DNA of 7,096 nt, from the NCBI GenBank assembly GCA_027004335.1, contig JALTID010000210.1:1-7096 (forward strand), given 5' to 3'. Numbering within the stretch: the stretch's first letter is position 1; each line of letters opens with the position of its first letter. This DNA is from JALTID01 sp027004335 [NCBI: bacterium] (GTDB lineage Bacteria; JALSQH01). Below the pieces are notes generated by a model. That model made no database searches. It saw nothing but the letters and a program-made list of their open reading frames with translations, and had not been told where the DNA came from. The translations under genes and the position numbers were made by a program. Positions 1-6,544 of this stretch are shown piece by piece.

Positions 1-1353
1 TTAGAAAAATTAAAAGAAATAGTGGGGAAAAATTTTCCCTCTGCTTCTGTTGAGGATCTCTATCTTTACGGTAGAGATGGTGGTTCCACCCCACCCCGAG
101 AGGTTGATTTTGTAGTTGCTCCCGGTAGCGTGGAAGATGTACAGCAGATAGTTAAGTTTGCCTATAATGAAGGGATCCCCATTACTCCATCCGGGGCTGG
201 ATTAACTCTCAATGGTCTTACCCTTCCTCTTAAGGGGGGGATTGTACTTGATATGAGGAGGATGAACAGGATCATTGAAGTAAATAAGTTGGCAAGATAT
301 GTGGTGGTTGAATCTGGTGTTACCCAGGGGTTTCTCCTCTCCTATCTCAAAGAAAACTATCCTGAGCTGCAACATTCACTTCCTGAGGCACCCCCCGCTG
401 CTACAGTGGTTGGGAATCTTTTAATAAAGGGTCACGGCACCCAGGCTTTTTATGGAGAAAATTCCGATATGATAAATGGTCTTGAAGTGATCCTTCCTGA
501 TGGAGAAATAGTTTATACAGGCTCCAGATCAATCTCAGACTACTGGTTTACCAAGGGACCCCTCCCTGAGCTAACAGGATTGTTTATCTCCTGGTTTGGG
601 ACCACAGGCATTGTCACAAAGGCTTCTCTCAGACTCTTTCCAAGAACCAGGTTTAAAGATGCGGTACTTTTTGTAACAGATGACGCTGAGCTTCTTCCAC
701 CTCTAATATATGAGATCACATCTACAAGACTGTTTGACAACATTGGAATGCTTGGTCAGGATCTCCCTGAATATTTAAAGGGACATAAATTTGTAGCTGT
801 TATGATCTCAGGGAATTATGAGGAAGAGATAGAACTTAAAAAAAGAATTATCTCCTCTGTGGAAGAAAAAGTTGATGGAGTGACTCTTATCCAGCAGATA
901 CCTCCAAATATTGCTAAGAGATTTATGGAGGAACCTCCCTTTGCAGCAGTTGCCGCTGATTTTAGAAAGGGGGGTGGATTCCAGTACTGTGGTTCCATGA
1001 TACCACTTGAAAAAGTGCCAGAGGCGTGGGTTGAAGGGGAGAAGATCGCCCACAAATATAATTTTTATTTTTCATGTGCCAACCAGGTACTTGCCTATGG
1101 TCATGAAGTTATGTTTGGATTCAACTACTCCTTTAACAGGGCGGACAAAGATGAAATAGAGAGAGTAAGAAAAGCAATGAAGGAAACCAATGAACTTGTT
1201 GTTAAATTGGGGGGGATCCCATGGAAGGCTGATACTTACGGACAGAAACTCATCCTTGATAAGATGTACCCGGGGACAAAAAAGCTGATTGAGAAGATCA
1301 AAAAACTGCTTGATCCTGAGGGAATAATGAATCCCGGCAACTGGGAGAGTTAA
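1..1353 (+). CDS. FAD-linked oxidase/dehydrogenase subunit (VAO/PCMH superfamily), 5' end outside window
   Basis: This is probably the flavoprotein catalytic subunit of a cytoplasmic dehydrogenase that oxidises a small organic substrate and passes electrons to the Fe-S protein encoded 3 bases downstream. The reading frame is open to the first base of the window and the residues before the GTG at 22 (LEKLKEI) suit this family, so the true start is upstream. Numbering from nucleotide 1, the FAD-binding PCMH-type domain covers about residues 10-225. It has the phosphate-binding loop PSGAGLTLNG (63-72), followed by a typical LDMRRMNRI segment and the GVT...PEAPPAATVVGN stretch (to about 139). The C-terminal cap ends with the family signature LDPEGIMNPGNW (437-448). 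Where GlcD-like enzymes carry GEHGIG, this protein has GGIPWKADTYG (404-414). Parts of the middle also recall p-cresol methylhydroxylase/vanillyl-alcohol oxidase. The superfamily is confident; the substrate (lactate, glycolate or other) is unknown. Confidence 0.88.
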   Translation, partial: LEKLKEIVGKNFPSASVEDLYLYGRDGGSTPPREVDFVVAPGSVEDVQQIVKFAYNEGIPITPSGAGLTLNGLTLPLKGGIVLDMRRMNRIIEVNKLARYVVVESGVTQGFLLSYLKENYPELQHSLPEAPPAATVVGNLLIKGHGTQAFYGENSDMINGLEVILPDGEIVYTGSRSISDYWFTKGPLPELTGLFISWFGTTGIVTKASLRLFPRTRFKDAVLFVTDDAELLPPLIYEITSTRLFDNIGMLGQDLPEYLKGHKFVAVMISGNYEEEIELKKRIISSVEEKVDGVTLIQQIPPNIAKRFMEEPPFAAVAADFRKGGGFQYCGSMIPLEKVPEAWVEGEKIAHKYNFYFSCANQVLAYGHEVMFGFNYSFNRADKDEIERVRKAMKETNELVVKLGGIPWKADTYGQKLILDKMYPGTKKLIEKIKKLLDPEGIMNPGNWES

Positions 1354-1356
1354 TAT

Positions 1357-2523
1357 ATGGGCCTTGATGAATACAGAGAGATAATTCATAGATGTTTTCG
1401 TTGTGGTTTCTGCAAATTAACAACTGATTACAACTGGAGAGGCTTTAACTGTCCGGAGTATAATAAATTCAGACTTGAGAGTTACTCTCCAGGTGGTATG
1501 CTCTGGCTCTCCTATGCTGCTTTTGTAACTGGAGAATTAAAACCAGACAACCATCTTGCTGAGATTCTGTATTCCTGCTCCATGTGCAAAAACTGCGCCC
1601 AGAGTTGTAAATTTAAATTTGGTGATATGGTAACTGAGATGCTCCGAAAAACAAGAGAGGAAATTGTAGAAAAACACCCTGAATTGGTTCCTGCGGTGGT
1701 TCAAAAATTTTTAAAGAATGTTTATAGATATGGAAATCCATATGGTGTAAATTCCTCCGAATTTAAAAGCATAGAAAAGATTCCTGGTGTTGAAAGATAC
1801 AGTAATCAGGAGTACCTCCTCTATCTCTCCCCCATCTCCTACATTGAACCTTCTGCCTATGAATCTGCCCATTCTCTTGCTGAGGTTTTAGTGAAGCTAA
1901 AAATCTCCTTTGGAATTATAGGACCTGATGAGATCTGTGACGGGAATGAGGTTCTGATGTTAGGTGATTCAGCCCTTTTTGATTATGTGAAGGAGAAAAA
2001 TCTTGAACAATTCAAAAAAATGAATGTTAAAAAAATTATCACATTCTCCCCCCACAGCTACAATGCCATGAAAAACTACTATTCTATGGATGAAATAGAA
2101 GTATTTCATTATACTCAGATTATTTATGACTTTCTTAACAAAGGTAAAATTAAATTTAACAGGGGACTTAATAAAAGGATCACCTACCATGATCCCTGTT
2201 TTTTAGGAAGATACAACGGTATTTATGAAGAACCAAGGGAGATTTTAAGGTCAATTCCCGGTATAGATTTTGTTGAAATGCCGAGAAACAGAGAAAAGGC
2301 TTTTTGCTGTGGTGGTGGAGGTGGTAATTTTTATACTGATATGATTGGCCCTGGTGAAAATGCACCATCCAGAGTTAGAGTTAGAGAAGCTGAGGAAACC
2401 GGTGCGGAAATTATTGCTGTTGCATGTCCTGTATGTAAGTTAATGCTGGAAAACGGGGCGCAGGGAGAAGATTCAAAATTAGAAATTAAAGATATATCAG
2501 CTATCCTTCTTGAACTCCTTTGA
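1357..2523 (+). CDS. Fe-S / CCG-domain electron-transfer protein, GlcF/HdrD-like
   Basis: This is the likely electron-accepting partner of the preceding flavoprotein, 388 residues, soluble. The N-terminal third resembles a two-cluster ferredoxin: C13-x2-C16-x2-C19 with C32-P, then C74-x2-C77-x2-C80-x3-C84. These would bind two [4Fe-4S] clusters. The rest has the layout of two cysteine-rich CCG domains. The second is intact: HDPC (C281), CCGGGGG (C317, C318) and CPVC (C357, C360). The first is degenerate: the expected cysteines are replaced in SPIS (158-161), EICDG (only C194 remains) and SPHSY (231-235). The fold is still recognisable there (FGIIGPDE, VKKIITFSPHSYN). The start is the ATG 3 bases after the upstream stop, with GGGAGAG at 1343-1349, 7 bases away. 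The gene is cotranscribed with the flavoprotein, and its last 27 bases overlap the opposing tetR-type gene. The partner role is inferred from GlcD/GlcF-type operons. Confidence 0.88.
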   Translation: MGLDEYREIIHRCFRCGFCKLTTDYNWRGFNCPEYNKFRLESYSPGGMLWLSYAAFVTGELKPDNHLAEILYSCSMCKNCAQSCKFKFGDMVTEMLRKTREEIVEKHPELVPAVVQKFLKNVYRYGNPYGVNSSEFKSIEKIPGVERYSNQEYLLYLSPISYIEPSAYESAHSLAEVLVKLKISFGIIGPDEICDGNEVLMLGDSALFDYVKEKNLEQFKKMNVKKIITFSPHSYNAMKNYYSMDEIEVFHYTQIIYDFLNKGKIKFNRGLNKRITYHDPCFLGRYNGIYEEPREILRSIPGIDFVEMPRNREKAFCCGGGGGNFYTDMIGPGENAPSRVRVREAEETGAEIIAVACPVCKLMLENGAQGEDSKLEIKDISAILLELL

Positions 2524-3174
2524 ATATTTCTTACTTAGACTTTCCATTTTTTCTCTAAACTCGTTGAATGCCTCAATTCTTATTTTCATTATTGTGTCCA
2601 GAGGCTGGTTCTCTAGTTCACTTAGTATCCCGTAATTGTAAAGGCTGACGATACCATGCAGTGTGCTCCAGAGGCGGATTAAATTTATTCTTGCTTCCTG
2701 CTCAGGGGTGCCCGAAAAGGCTTCTCTGAGAAGTTTTAATATAAAATTAAACACCTTCAGACCTGTTTTTTTACTTTCTGATGCCAGTTTTTCCGCGTCT
2801 GTTCCTACAAAATCTGTATACCTCGGGGCAGAAGTCATGAGCATCACTTCATAGTAGTTTTTGTTTTTTATTGCAAAATTTATGTATGCTTCCCCTACAT
2901 TTAAGAGTTTTTCAAGGGGGGTTTTCCCGGAAAGAGTTAAAGAAGATAAAGCGGAATAGAGTTTTTCAAAAGCCCTTTTTAACAGGGTAAGATAAAGTGC
3001 ATCTTTACTCGGAAAATAATTGTAAAGATTTGCTGCAGTCATACCTGTTCTCTTGGCAATATTTCTCATACTCAGATTTGCATAACCTTCCCTTGTTATT
3101 ACATCAAGGGCTGCAGCAAGAATTTTTTCTTTTACCTGTTCAATTTCTTCCGGGGTTCTTGGTAACTTTGCCAT
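2497..3174 (-). CDS. TetR/AcrR-family transcriptional regulator
   Basis: This is a 225-residue DNA-binding repressor. The N-terminal TetR domain is clear. A first helix (about 11-29, [14 protein letters not shown]) is followed by the helix-turn-helix at about 34-53 ([21 protein letters not shown]) and the usual [12 protein letters not shown] continuation. The C-terminal ligand and dimerisation region (about 70-225) is all-helical and too divergent for me to name a ligand. I chose the ATG at 3174 because GAGGGG lies 8 bases upstream; a TTG six codons earlier overlaps that ribosome-binding site. The gene is convergent with the Fe-S gene and overlaps its end by 27 bases. It is divergent from the S6-S18/L9/DnaB operon. 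It has its own strong promoter, with an inverted repeat over the -10 box that would fit autoregulation. The flavoprotein operon is a possible target, but its promoter is outside the window. Confidence 0.9.
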
Positions 3175-3182
3175 CTCTTCAT

Positions 3183-3188
3183 CCCCTC
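3183..3188 (-). promoter_or_regulatory. Ribosome-binding site deciding the tetR-type start
   Basis: Read on the - strand this is GAGGGG, 8 bases before the ATG at 3174-3172. The longer reading from TTG at 3192-3190 would start just before this site and has no comparable purine-rich site upstream, so the ATG is preferred. Confidence 0.7.
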
Positions 3189-3208
3189 TCAAGAATTTGT
3201 AGTATTAA

Positions 3209-3231
3209 ACCTATTTATATTTATAATTGGT
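3209..3231. promoter_or_regulatory. Imperfect inverted repeat, candidate TetR operator
   Basis: A 23-bp imperfect palindrome with half-sites ACCTATT and AATTGGT; 7 of 11 half-site positions are symmetric around the central base. It covers the -10 box of the repressor's own promoter, where an autorepressor would be expected to bind. Part of the symmetry may simply come from the AT-rich -10 region, so this is a suggestion rather than a demonstrated operator. Confidence 0.35.
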
Positions 3232-3242
3232 AAGAATGTCAA
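3214..3242 (-). promoter_or_regulatory. Sigma-70-type promoter of the tetR-type gene
   Basis: On the - strand there is a perfect -35 box TTGACA (3242-3237), a 17-base spacer and a -10 box TATAAA (3219-3214). Transcription would begin near 3207, giving a leader of about 33 bases before the ATG at 3174. Box quality and spacing are close to consensus. Confidence 0.75.
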
Positions 3243-3259
3243 GGGTAAGACTTTATTAT

Positions 3260-3287
3260 TTGATTTTATTTTTGTGAAATATATAAT
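3260..3287 (+). promoter_or_regulatory. Sigma-70-type promoter of the S6-S18/L9/DnaB operon
   Basis: TTGATT (3260-3265), a 16-base spacer and a perfect TATAAT (3282-3287) predict a transcription start near 3294. The -35 box lies 17 bases from the -35 box of the divergent repressor promoter, so the two promoters sit back to back. This position also rules out the ATG at 3274 as the operon's first start, since that ATG lies before the -10 box. Confidence 0.72.
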
Positions 3288-3296
3288 AATGCTAAA

Positions 3297-3344
3297 CTCC
3301 TTGCTCTTCCTTCAAGAGGGAGGGCTAAAAAACCATGAGGAGGT
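3297..3344 (+). promoter_or_regulatory. Structured mRNA leader of the ribosomal-protein operon
   Basis: Two nested pairings can be drawn in the short leader. A hairpin at 3303-3325 pairs GCUCUUCC with GGGAGGGC in 8 base pairs (two of them G-U) around a 7-base loop. Enclosing it, CUCCUU (3297-3302) can pair with GAGGAG (3337-3342), which is the Shine-Dalgarno core of the S6-S18 gene. This would hide the ribosome-binding site and allow translational control. Bacterial rpsF leaders are known to bind the S6:S18 dimer in many phyla, but I do not see the CCG element of that motif here. The pairing is seen in the sequence; regulation is inferred. Confidence 0.45.
3337..3344 (+). promoter_or_regulatory. 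Shine-Dalgarno site deciding the S6-S18 start
   Basis: GAGGAGGT ends 4 bases before the ATG at 3349, and the same motif precedes L9. It fixes the start at 3349, where the protein begins [10 protein letters not shown] as normal S6 does, rather than at the in-frame ATG 25 codons upstream. Confidence 0.85.
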
Positions 3345-3348
3345 GCTT

Positions 3349-3930
3349 ATGAGAGTCTATGAGACTATTTTTATTCTTGGTGAAAAGTTAGAGGATCCAC
3401 AGATTTCAGAGGAAATTGAAAAATATCGCAAACTCATTGAAGAAAGTGGTGGTGACATAATTTCTGTGGATAACTGGGGTAAAAGAACCCTCGCTTATGA
3501 GATTCAGAAAAATAGAAGAGGGACTTATGTTCTTATAAAATTTCAGGGGGAGGGAGACATCATTAAGAAGCTTGAGAGAAGATTTAGACTTGACGAACAT
3601 GTTATTAGATTTTTTACTGCAAAGGTTGAGCAGAAAAAGGAAGGGAAAAAGAGGACCAGAAGATCCGGGCAGAATGGAGAGTATAGAAGAGGAAGGAAGA
3701 AATATGGAAGGTTCTGCGAAGATGGAGTTGAGATTGATTATAAAAATCCTCGTTTACTCAGAGATTATATTACAGAAAGAGGAAAAATTCTTCCAAGAAG
3801 AGTTACCGGTACATGCGCAAAACATCAGAGGCAACTCACCGTTGCGATAAAGCGGGCAAGAGTTTTGGCATTAATACCATTTACAACTGTGACAAAGAAG
3901 ATTATAATTTTACCAAAGGATTTGAAATAA
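3349..3930 (+). CDS. rpsF-rpsR: Fused ribosomal proteins S6 and S18 in one reading frame
   Basis: This is a single 193-residue frame carrying two small-subunit proteins that are normally separate and that bind each other on the 30S platform. S6 spans residues 1-94: beta strand [19 protein letters not shown] at 43-54 and [15 protein letters not shown] at 75-89. A basic linker (about 95-112) follows. S18 spans about 113-178 and includes [19 protein letters not shown] (143-161) and [14 protein letters not shown] tail of about 15 residues (179-193) extends past the usual S18 end. Of the S18 cysteines, C123 and C156 remain, while the position two to three residues before C123 is Gly120 rather than Cys. 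No ATG, GTG or TTG occurs in frame between the S6 core and the S18 body, so S18 cannot be started separately in this frame. Its neighbour is rplI, 19 bases downstream; ssb is absent. The alternative is a 2-base insertion error at 3677-3681. Confidence 0.88.
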
Positions 3931-3936
3931 AATAGC

Positions 3937-3944
3937 GAGGAGGT
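3937..3944 (+). promoter_or_regulatory. Ribosome-binding site of rplI
   Basis: GAGGAGGT, 5 bases before the ATG at 3950. It is the same strong site as in front of the S6-S18 gene and sits inside the 19-base gap between the two genes. Confidence 0.8.
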
Positions 3945-3949
3945 AGGTA

Positions 3950-4411
3950 ATGGAGGTGATTCTCCTAGAAGATGTGGAAAAATTGGGGAAAATAGGAGAT
4001 GTTGTTAAGGTTGCTGATGGCTACGCAAGGAATTATCTTATCCCCAAAAAGTTAGCGGTAAAGGCAGATCCCAGAAGAGTGAAAGAGTTTGAGCATAAAA
4101 AGAGAATGGTCCAGAGAAAGATTGAAAAGAAAAAGAAGATGATGGAATCTCTTGCAGAAAAACTTTCTGGGGTTAAACTAACCTTCCATAGGAAAATAGT
4201 TGAAGGAGAGGAAAGCAAGATATATGGCTCTGTTACGATTAATGACCTTCTTACCGCTCTTCAAAATGAAGGAATAGAAGTTCCCAAGAATAGTGTAGAG
4301 TTGGAAAAGCCGTTAAAGCAGTTAGGTGTCTTCACTGTGCATGTGAAGCTGGATCTGGGGATAAAAAGTGAGGTACAGGTGGAGATAATGCCTGAAGATG
4401 AAAATAAGTGA
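3950..4411 (+). CDS. rplI: 50S ribosomal protein L9
   Basis: L9 binds 23S rRNA near the base of the L1 stalk and helps maintain reading-frame fidelity. The protein has 153 residues, the usual length (about 150). The N-terminal rRNA-binding domain is textbook: MEVILLEDVEKLGKIGD then VVKVADGYARNYLIPKKLA (18-36). It is followed by the long, lysine-rich connecting helix (about 40-75, EFEHKKRMVQRKIEKKKK) and the C-terminal domain (about 76-150) with GSVTINDLLTAL and IEVPKNSVELEKPLKQLGVF. The gene lies 19 bases after the S6-S18 stop and its last 14 bases overlap the start of dnaB. Nothing is unusual in the protein. Confidence 0.97.
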   Translation: MEVILLEDVEKLGKIGDVVKVADGYARNYLIPKKLAVKADPRRVKEFEHKKRMVQRKIEKKKKMMESLAEKLSGVKLTFHRKIVEGEESKIYGSVTINDLLTALQNEGIEVPKNSVELEKPLKQLGVFTVHVKLDLGIKSEVQVEIMPEDENK

Positions 4412-5774
4412 AGATATAGGGGGAAAAGTACCCCCTCAAAATCTGGAGGCGGAAGAGTATTTACTTGGGAGTTTGCTTCTTGATAATTCTCTTGTTGATT
4501 CAGTGGCTGGTGTAGTATCTGAAAAAGATTTTTACAAACCTGCTCATGGGGTGATTTTTCGGCATATGCTACTATTACGGGATAGGGGTGACCCCATTGA
4601 TGTAGTCACTTTAACTGAATCACTTACAAAATCGGGGGAAATAGAACTCACCGGTGGAGCATCATATATTGCTTCTCTTGCGGATGTTGCTCCATTGGCT
4701 TCTCATGCTGAAGATTATGCAAGAATTGTTAAAGAAAAATCTGTTTTGAGAATGTTGATTCGTGAAGCAACGAGGATTGTTGATGAGGCATACATGCCGG
4801 AGAAGGATGTTGAAACATTTTTTGGTGAGGTGGAGAAGAGGATCTTTGAGATATTAGAAAGCGGTCAGCCAGAAGTCCTTGTTCCAATAAGGGATGCTCT
4901 TGAAGAGGTAATGGGAATACTTGAAGAACTCTCCTCCTCCCCCTATGCAAGGATTGGAATATCCACAGGGTTTGAAGATCTTGATAATATTATATATGGT
5001 TTGCTGCCCGGCAACTTTATTATCCTTGCTGCCCGACCCTCTAAGGGTAAGACTTCTTTTGCTTTAAATATAGCAACCAATGTTGCGATGAAGGGCTTTC
5101 CTGTGCTTTTCATTTCCATGGAGATGCAGGTTAGAGAATTAATTAACAGAATGCTCTCTTCAATGTCTGGAGTTCCCCTTGATATTATAATTAAAGGACT
5201 TTTTGGTCAGAGTGGCATGTTGAAAATTTACAAGGCTTATGAGAGCTTGAAGGATCTTGATATTAAATTTGATACCTCTTCAAGAACTCTTTATGATGTT
5301 AGGACCAAGATAAGAAAATTTGTTAATGAAAATTATAGAAAGTATAAGGATAAGAATAAATTAGGGCTTGTGATTATAGATTATATTCAATTGATGACCT
5401 CTGGAGGTAGAAGTGAGAGAAGAGAATTAGATGTAGCAGAAGTATCCAGAGGATTAAAAAATATTGCCAGTGATCTTAATATCCCTGTTTTTGCTCTTTC
5501 TCAATTGAATAGAGAGGTGGAAAAAAGAGAAAGAGTGGAGCCGCGGTTATCAGATCTCAGGGAATCTGGCGCTCTTGAACAGGATGCTGATCTTATAATG
5601 TTTATTTATGATCCTGATGAACTGAAAAAGAAAAAAGATGAAGCGGTACGGAAACAATCACGGGATTTTCAAAGATTGATTGTTAAGGTAGCCAAACAGC
5701 GAAATGGTATGTTGGGATCTGTAGAATTCCAGTTTTATAAAAGATTGACACTTTTTAGAGAAGTAACTATTTAG
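4398..5774 (+). CDS. dnaB: Replicative DNA helicase DnaB
   Basis: This is the hexameric helicase that unwinds the replication fork; 458 residues, normal length. The N-terminal primase-interacting domain starts with KVPPQNLEAEEYLLGSLLLD (residues 10-29). A linker follows, then the RecA-like motor from about residue 185. Walker A is ARPSKGKT (212-219), with Lys216 where many DnaB proteins have Met. Walker B is LVIIDYIQLM (324-333, Asp328), the H4 region is FALSQLNREVEKR (365-377), and the arginine-finger region is RLSDLRESGALEQDAD (383-398). The end has the usual VAKQRNGMLGSVEFQF. There is no intein. The start ATG lies inside the end of rplI (14-base overlap) with only a weak ribosome-binding site, and a stop lies four codons upstream in frame, so translation probably depends on coupling to L9. 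The stop overlaps the stop of the opposing gene by 4 bases. Confidence 0.97.
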   Translation: MKISEDIGGKVPPQNLEAEEYLLGSLLLDNSLVDSVAGVVSEKDFYKPAHGVIFRHMLLLRDRGDPIDVVTLTESLTKSGEIELTGGASYIASLADVAPLASHAEDYARIVKEKSVLRMLIREATRIVDEAYMPEKDVETFFGEVEKRIFEILESGQPEVLVPIRDALEEVMGILEELSSSPYARIGISTGFEDLDNIIYGLLPGNFIILAARPSKGKTSFALNIATNVAMKGFPVLFISMEMQVRELINRMLSSMSGVPLDIIIKGLFGQSGMLKIYKAYESLKDLDIKFDTSSRTLYDVRTKIRKFVNENYRKYKDKNKLGLVIIDYIQLMTSGGRSERRELDVAEVSRGLKNIASDLNIPVFALSQLNREVEKRERVEPRLSDLRESGALEQDADLIMFIYDPDELKKKKDEAVRKQSRDFQRLIVKVAKQRNGMLGSVEFQFYKRLTLFREVTI

Positions 5775-6544
5775 GTTATTATCTTCCAGATAGCAGTGGT
5801 GGGAAGAAGTTCCATTTTCATTTCTGTTATTTCTTTTTTAAAATTTCTAAGGAAATCGGTATCATATTTATAACTCGTGAGTTGAGGTCTTACAATTTTA
5901 TCCTCTGAAGAACACAGTACGGTAGGAGTTGCTGCAAGAGCTCCTGTAATAATCAATTCATACGATCCAATTTTGTTAATCAGCCATTCTTTCCCCATGG
6001 CATCGCAACCGATAAGAACTATGTCTCTTTTGCGTGAAAGTTTTGCCAGATTTTCGTCCTTTGTTACAAAGGTCCTGATTCCATGTTTTCTCAATTCCTC
6101 CGCAGTCTTATATCCCTCCATGGCAGGATGCCCTTCTCCAACAGTTACTGTAAAATCTTTCCCCTCTTCACGAAGCGCAATTAAAGAGGAGATAACCATT
6201 TTGCTGTGAGAGATTGTCACAAGTTTTTTTACCTCAAGTTTTTTTAAGAAATTTACGCATTTTTTTACAGGTTCTTGGTGGATTTTCTTCAGGTGCGTTC
6301 TGAAATCAATCAGGTGTTCTTTGAGATTGTCCCTGTAATTTTCAAGGTGATAGGCAATGTAATGCATCTGGATCATAGGGGGGAAATTTTTTCTAATCTC
6401 AGCTGCTGTCCATTTCAGAATTTCAGGGGTAATTTCTTTTTCATATTCAATGAGGACTTCAATGATCTTTTCCTGGAGGTAGGTTGCACCGTGGGTCCTG
6501 TCTTCTAAAAGTTGCTGAAGTTTTCCTATTACCTCTTTGCTCAT
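5771..6544 (-). CDS. eIF-2B alpha/MtnA-fold protein of unknown substrate
   Basis: This is a 257-residue member of the eIF-2B/methylthioribose-1-phosphate isomerase/ribose-1,5-bisphosphate isomerase superfamily. The N-terminal helical part (1-about 95) precedes a Rossmann-like C-terminal domain. Family marks are VTISHSKMVISSL (109-121), VGEGHPAMEGYKTAEELRKHGI (135-156, matching the usual ESRP..eG stretch) and IGCDAMGKEWLINKIGSYELIITGA (178-202, matching the GAD...NKIGT stretch). Asp181 aligns with the catalytic Asp. The catalytic Cys of the isomerases aligns with Ser112, and the HSKMV pattern is closer to eIF-2B alpha (SRVV). Isomerase activity is therefore doubtful; a sugar-phosphate or nucleotide sensing role is possible but speculative. 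The start ATG overlaps the stop of the upstream nuclease gene as ATGA, with AGGATAGGG just before it, so the two are translationally coupled. It is somewhat shorter than the usual 300 or so residues. Confidence 0.8.
   Translation of the reverse strand: MSKEVIGKLQQLLEDRTHGATYLQEKIIEVLIEYEKEITPEILKWTAAEIRKNFPPMIQMHYIAYHLENYRDNLKEHLIDFRTHLKKIHQEPVKKCVNFLKKLEVKKLVTISHSKMVISSLIALREEGKDFTVTVGEGHPAMEGYKTAEELRKHGIRTFVTKDENLAKLSRKRDIVLIGCDAMGKEWLINKIGSYELIITGALAATPTVLCSSEDKIVRPQLTSYKYDTDFLRNFKKEITEMKMELLPTTAIWKIIT

What the first reader, a model, noticed from the sequence alone, without database searches (positions are those of the whole stretch)
3349..3930. Ribosomal proteins S6 and S18 fused into one polypeptide
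One frame encodes a complete S6, a basic linker of about 18 residues, a complete S18 and a short tail. No in-frame ATG, GTG or TTG lies between the S6 core and the S18 body, so the two would be made as one chain. S6 and S18 bind as a heterodimer on the 30S platform, which makes a fusion physically reasonable and would fix their ratio at 1:1. I do not recall a described S6-S18 fusion in bacteria.
Basis: partly seen in the sequence, partly recalled or inferred. Interest (0 to 1): 0.82.

Follow-up and report, generated by a model that had tools for sequence, protein, structure and literature searches.

The report
Ribosomal proteins S6 and S18 fused
In this uncultured bacterium, two ribosomal proteins that normally pair up as separate chains are encoded as one chain behind their usual self-regulating RNA switch; such fusions turn up rarely but in several distinct bacterial groups.

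Summary
Window 3349-3930 is one 193-codon ORF with near-complete S6 and S18 family matches, both above curated cut-offs, joined by a basic linker of about 21 residues without in-frame start or stop. It is the only S6/S18 place found in its 80%-complete genome. rplI and dnaB follow; ssb is on another contig. Upstream (3295-3345) lies an S6:S18-type autoregulatory operator: a covariance model built from nine other loci finds it at E 2.2e-12, and the same model's best hit in the E. coli operon is the proven rpsF leader. Stop-free S6-S18 ORFs occur in 4 of 386 genomes (three of them built the profile), and a fifth was found later. In two larger phyla all spanning hits (13 of 395 and 15 of 245 genomes) keep a stop. 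The one same-family relative is undecided: its assembly breaks here. Most likely this is a real fusion that acts as one 30S platform unit and, by inference, as its own single-chain repressor. No description was found in the listings searched. New variant of a known partnership; moderate interest.

The parts
3260..3287 (+). possible sigma-70 promoter (TTGATT, 16 nt, TATAAT), which would start transcription close to the operator
   Evidence: consensus scan, 10 of 12 matches; 4 sites found in 3150-4000 against 2.3 expected in shuffles, so weak
3295..3345 (+). S6:S18 operator (rpsF-leader type): stem CUCCUU/GAGGAG that holds the Shine-Dalgarno sequence, inner hairpin GCUC..GGGC, unpaired strand with the CC pair
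   Evidence: covariance model R1 built from 9 other loci: 49.8 bits, E 2.2e-12; predicted fold -22.4 kcal/mol, z -2.73, 4 of 200 shuffles as good; same model's best hit in the E. coli operon is the rpsF leader, E 6.5e-4
3349..3930 (+). rpsF::rpsR fusion gene, 193 aa plus stop
3349..3630 (+). S6 domain, residues 1-94
   Evidence: NCBIfam TIGR00166 1-94; the two best PDB matches of the model are S6 chains at rmsd 0.9-1.1 A
3631..3693 (+). basic linker, residues 95-115, no start or stop codon in frame
   Evidence: between the two NCBIfam matches; codons checked; pLDDT 56 in residues 101-110 and 66 in 111-120
3694..3885 (+). S18 domain, residues 116-179, with the IKRAR motif at 167-171
   Evidence: NCBIfam TIGR00165 116-179; 40 of 65 identical to E. 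coli S18
3886..3927 (+). short C-terminal tail, residues 180-193; a similar tail ends the S18 fragment of same-family genome G001
   Evidence: pLDDT 50 and 44
3950..4411 (+). rplI (L9), next gene
4398..5774 (+). dnaB, start overlaps the end of rplI

Best explanation
A genuine fusion of rpsF and rpsR. The ancestor probably had the two genes side by side without ssb or priB between them; loss of the rpsF stop in a compatible frame joined them (inferred). Translation from the ATG at 3349 makes one basic chain of about 23 kDa (estimate from 193 residues). Its S6 and S18 halves fold as the usual domains (predicted) and bind each other within the chain (inferred). The unit joins the 30S platform in one step, at a fixed 1:1 ratio (inferred). 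Surplus chain binds the operator at 3295-3345 through the S18 half and hides the Shine-Dalgarno sequence, so the repressor is one molecule and not a heterodimer that must first form (inferred from the operator and from E. coli work). A free S6 C-terminus and a free S18 N-terminus no longer exist, so modification of those ends is excluded unless the chain is cut.
For: Both domains matched almost end to end and above curated cut-offs in one frame; no start or stop in that frame at the junction. Only one place in the genome matches the protein, and G000, G034, G049 and G241 each show a single S18 match. S6-S18 ORFs without a stop in G034, G049, G241 and G387, confirmed with separate S6 and S18 models; the linkers of the five are 10 to 35 residues between the model matches. 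Operator upstream in the window, in G001 and in G049 at E 2.2e-12, 4.3e-12 and 3.9e-8; in 62 other loci, none used to build the model, 11 hits at E <= 0.01, all 11 directly upstream of S6. S18 residues at the operator contact in E. coli (K60, R61, R63; PMC4647458, passages read) align with K168, R169, R171, and IKRAR is invariant in the five fusions. AlphaFold2 model: mean pLDDT 86.4, pTM 0.77 for the whole chain. The hypothetical separate S18 start at 3674 has no strong Shine-Dalgarno sequence before it (one search lists only GAGG at 3651 upstream of it within 3560-3674), whereas S6 and L9 have GAGGAGG.
Against: No reads, transcripts or peptides were available. The only same-family genome, G001, is split here: S6 runs off one contig at about residue 87 and S18 starts at about residue 125 on another, so the window's fusion has no close confirmation. 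One missing base between 3677 and 3684 would restore overlapping separate genes, and across 3640-3720 frame +1 even scores a little better in codon usage than the fusion's frame (0.61 against 0.40 per codon). The operator model finds no leader for G034, G387 or G241 at E <= 1 (with filters off only E 2.4 for G034, 0.21 for G241 and none for G387), and the fold energy of G001's leader is not exceptional (z -0.92). The other four fusions have more degenerate S18 halves than the window.
Confidence: 0.82

Rival explanations
1. Assembly or consensus error: one base is missing near 3677-3684, and the true genome has rpsF ending at the TAG at 3684-3686, overlapping rpsR that starts at the ATG at 3674.
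For: The ATG and TAG are in the frames that such an error needs, and frame +1 scores slightly better than the fusion's frame in 3640-3720. Fragmented assembly, 262 contigs. The relative's assembly also breaks in this region.
Against: Needs an indel in an 8-base stretch without a long homopolymer; no strong Shine-Dalgarno sequence before 3674; stop-free fusions in four other assemblies show that the arrangement exists.
Confidence: 0.1
2. The fused chain is made but cut in the linker after translation, so the ribosome carries ordinary separate S6 and S18.
For: The linker is basic, long and predicted flexible (pLDDT 56-66), a plausible protease target.
Against: Linkers of the five fusions differ in length and sequence, with no shared site by eye; G049's is only about 10 residues. 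Cleavage motifs and proteases were not searched for.
Confidence: 0.06
3. Separate S18 is also made from the same mRNA by internal initiation or frameshifting, giving both fused and free forms.
For: An ATG lies at 3674 in frame +1.
Against: No in-frame start codon in 3560-3760, so frame +1 would need a frameshift as well. Slippery signals were not searched for.
Confidence: 0.02

Closest known systems
bS6:bS18 heterodimer of the 30S platform, encoded by rpsF and rpsR
   Same: Both family models matched almost end to end; RNA-contacting IKRAR motif kept; rplI follows as in E. coli
   Different: One polypeptide; no free S6 C-terminus or S18 N-terminus; first cysteine of the CxFC motif common in S18 relatives is glycine
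rpsF leader / S6:S18 operator of E. coli and B. subtilis (Babina 2015, PMC4647458, passages read; Matelska 2013 and Fu 2014 known here only through citing text)
   Same: Stem with the Shine-Dalgarno sequence, inner hairpin, CC pair in the unpaired strand; the same covariance model finds both
   Different: The effector here would be a single chain instead of a heterodimer; the base after the CC pair is A, but G in E. coli and in relative G001
rpsF-ssb-rpsR or rpsF-priB-rpsR-rplI operons (review PMC10931766, passages read; E. coli)
   Same: S6, S18, L9 order
   Different: Nothing between S6 and S18; ssb is on another contig; rpsF and rpsR are one gene
   Same: Same domain order in one ORF; an L9 gene follows in G034 and G049
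   Different: Linkers of 10-35 residues without evident similarity; the S18 halves of the other four lack the CxFC motif altogether

Membership tests
bS6 (TIGR00166 / PF01250) | near full-length match above the curated cut-off | tested here: met
   88.1 bits against 42.9; 106.7 against 27
bS18 (TIGR00165 / PF01084) | near full-length match above the curated cut-off | tested here: met
   100.9 bits against 38.75; 96 against 21
bS18 (TIGR00165 / PF01084) | RNA-contacting K, R, R of IKRAR | tested here: met
   K168, R169, R171 align with E. coli K60, R61, R63
Single-chain S6-S18 fusion | both domains in one open frame without internal start or stop | tested here: met
Single-chain S6-S18 fusion | no separate S6 or S18 gene elsewhere in the genome | tested here: met
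   one place in G000, one S18 match; genome 80% complete, so not final
Single-chain S6-S18 fusion | present in close relatives | tested here: inconclusive
   the one same-family genome is broken at this place
Single-chain S6-S18 fusion | intact chain in ribosomes | not testable with these tools
   needs proteomics or cryo-EM
rpsF leader (S6:S18 operator) | two-helix structure with CC pair next to the Shine-Dalgarno stem, just before rpsF | tested here: met
   R1 hit at 3295-3345, E 2.2e-12; no Rfam family matched there at gathering score, only chance hits below it
rpsF leader (S6:S18 operator) | represses translation on binding S6:S18 | not testable with these tools
   shown for E. coli in PMC4647458 (passages read)

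The most novel reading that the evidence does not exclude
Covalent fusion of S6 and S18 has become fixed more than once in deep bacterial lineages. There the platform heterodimer works as a single chain both in the ribosome and as its own translational repressor, which removes the dimerisation step from the feedback loop and removes the two chain ends that other bacteria modify.
Probability: 0.5. Interest if true: 0.62.

Novelty: new variant of a known kind. Interest (0 to 1): 0.52.

Why it matters
As far as I know (recalled, no call), fusions of two ribosomal proteins are unusual, because each is under strong constraint. A natural S6-S18 chain is a ready-made test of whether the two need to move or turn over separately, of the order of 30S platform assembly, and of a repressor that is normally a heterodimer. 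It also predicts that such cells cannot glutamylate an S6 C-terminus (RimK in E. coli, passage) or acetylate an S18 N-terminus (RimI, passage) on the uncut chain.

Tried and rejected
The first leader alignment (A3, 30 sequences) misplaced the hairpin arms and gave only four pairs. It was replaced by nine leaders chosen for equal spacing between hairpin and CC (A4). The rest of the 66 of 117 S6 upstream windows that met a loose pattern (some of those matches, such as L003's, are out of register) were left out of the model. The model finds only 11 of 62 further loci at E <= 0.01, so it is specific but not sensitive; the strongest of the 11 (L057) resembles rows of the model.

Trees: concatenated S6, S18 and L9, 106 rows (32 loci without all three were dropped). 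The fused label needs three changes, at least two forced by starred branches; G049 groups with G034 and G387 at support 77, unstarred. In a 34-row subset chosen by me there were four changes, at least two forced, but one clade of all fused rows plus G001 was not rejected (p-AU 0.296), and a clade of the window's family with G034, G387 and G049 scored higher than the free tree (p-AU 0.594). Three of the four tests on the large tree did not finish. So the number of origins is open. G049 is a long branch.

First protein alignment for AlphaFold placed S6 rows on S18 (A5) and was discarded; a second (A6) had a row with masked letters and was replaced by A7. The 50 Foldseek matches shown align over about 89-96 columns with chains of 92-122 residues from S6 or small-subunit entries; none covers the whole 193-residue model.

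Literature: searched for S6-S18 or ribosomal-protein fusions. None of the listed titles and abstract starts describes an S6-S18 fusion, and the six exact phrases gave 0 papers. Lists were partial: 20 of 62 papers, 20 of 46, 25 of 174. Passages were read in PMC4647458, PMC10931766 and PMC3571937. Only open-access papers are held. I recall, without a call, that automatic protein databases label some two-domain entries as multifunctional fusion proteins, so such ORFs may already be listed without comment.

Full report
The observation. Window 3349-3930 translates to 193 residues and a stop. It passes the Pfam and NCBIfam models of both S6 and S18 over nearly their whole length. The coding frame has no stop and no ATG, GTG or TTG between 3560 and 3760. 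In the own genome (1.5 Mb, 262 contigs, 80.2% complete) this is the only place that matches the protein, and the only S18 match.

The surroundings. The gene is followed by rplI (3950-4411) and by dnaB (4398-5774), whose start overlaps rplI. ssb or priB stands between rpsF and rpsR in several groups of bacteria (PMC10931766, passage); here the one SSB match of the genome is on another contig, and in relative G001 it is on a contig other than those of the S6 and S18 pieces. Upstream on the other strand is a TetR-family gene.

The operator. Bases 3295-3345 fold into a stem that holds the Shine-Dalgarno sequence and an inner hairpin, with an unpaired strand containing CC (z -2.73 for the window, but only -0.92 for G001 and -1.97 for G049). 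A covariance model was built from leaders of nine other loci chosen for equal spacing. Its two helices have 14 cells with changes on both sides against 3.6 in shuffles, and 96.6% of cells paired. It finds the window's leader at E 2.2e-12, G001's at 4.3e-12 and G049's at 3.9e-8 among six sources; the leaders of G034, G387 and G241 were not found at E <= 1, and with filters off the G034 and G241 leaders gave E 2.4 and 0.21 and G387's none. In 62 named loci that were not used to build it, 11 hits reached E <= 0.01, and all 11 lie directly upstream of S6 (S6 starts). In E. coli rpsF-priB-rpsR-rplI (1701 bases) its best hit is the leader just before rpsF, E 6.5e-4. That leader lowers expression of a reporter about fourfold when S6 and S18 are both overexpressed; [quoted passage not shown] The matching S18 residues are present in the fusion, and IKRAR is invariant in the five fusions. 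A review (PMC10931766, passages read) describes S6 and S18 as a heterodimer that regulates its own operon.

How rare it is. A profile of three fusions (window, G034, G049; these match by construction) was run on 386 genomes, whose family codes run to 260. At E <= 1e-25, four ORFs span both domains without a stop: the three of the profile and G241, which is new. Seventeen others span both domains in one frame but with one stop (16) or two (G023). These show how a single lost stop could make a fusion. In the phyla of the fused genomes: window's phylum 1 open fusion with G001 undecided (2 genomes); G034's phylum 2 of 5, G387 being new; G241's 1 of 2; G049's 1 of 1. A profile of five fusions run on 395 genomes of G024's phylum gave 13 spanning hits at E <= 1e-33, all with at least one stop. 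On 245 genomes of G054's phylum it gave 15, all with at least one stop. Some genomes are in more than one of these sets, and a diverged fusion could fall below the thresholds. S6-S18 ORFs were confirmed with separate S6 and S18 models in the loci of all five genomes.

Origins. The five fusions lie in four phylum-level groups by the tool's grouping. Trees of S6, S18 and L9 suggest at least two changes between fused and separate, but one clade is not rejected. Whether the fusion arose once or several times is therefore open. Linkers differ in length and show no evident shared sequence.

The main weakness. The only same-family genome, G001, has S6 on one contig that ends at about residue 87, and S18 on another that begins at about residue 125. 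This fits a fusion with a short unassembled linker, but also fits other arrangements. A missing base near 3677-3684 would turn the window into overlapping separate genes, and codon usage in 3640-3720 does not speak against this (frame +1 0.61, fusion frame 0.40 per codon). I consider it unlikely, because no strong Shine-Dalgarno sequence precedes the ATG at 3674 and because other assemblies hold an open frame of this kind.

Structure. AlphaFold2 with 22 rows gives mean pLDDT 86.4 and pTM 0.77, with both halves confident and the linker low. The S6 half matches PDB S6 chains, the two best at rmsd 0.9 and 1.1 A. No fused chain is among the 60 PDB sequence matches shown of 139. G049's linker of about 10 residues implies that the S6 end and the S18 start can lie close together (inference).

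Verdict. A real, rare gene fusion that recurs in several deep lineages is by far the best reading. Its working as one assembly unit and one repressor molecule is inferred from well-studied parts. It is a new variant of the S6:S18 partnership, and I found no description of it in the listings and passages seen.

Noticed in passing
L113 1-281 and L112 1-209 (G001 contigs C250 and C135): The relative's assembly breaks inside the S6-S18 region on both sides, which hides whether it is fused.
   Followed up: partly
window 3694-3720: The S18 half reads KYGRFCED: the first cysteine of the CxFC motif common in relatives is glycine. The S18 halves of the other four fusions lack this motif altogether.
   Followed up: partly
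L115, L118 and the loci: A number of genomes hold rpsF and rpsR in the same frame with one stop between them (16 of 386), a natural starting point for fusion.
   Followed up: yes
In 8 of 386 genomes no S18 was found, and in G180 only a weak one (E 3.5e-6); incomplete assemblies or diverged S18.
   Followed up: no
window 1-2523: FAD-linked oxidase and a CCG/4Fe-4S protein side by side, similar to glycolate or lactate oxidase pairs but below the curated cut-offs, beside a TetR regulator on the other strand.
   Followed up: no
window 5771-6544, - strand: IF-2B / ribose-1,5-bisphosphate isomerase-like protein below all NCBIfam cut-offs shown, next to a PD-(D/E)XK nuclease domain with weak likeness to AddB.
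   Followed up: no
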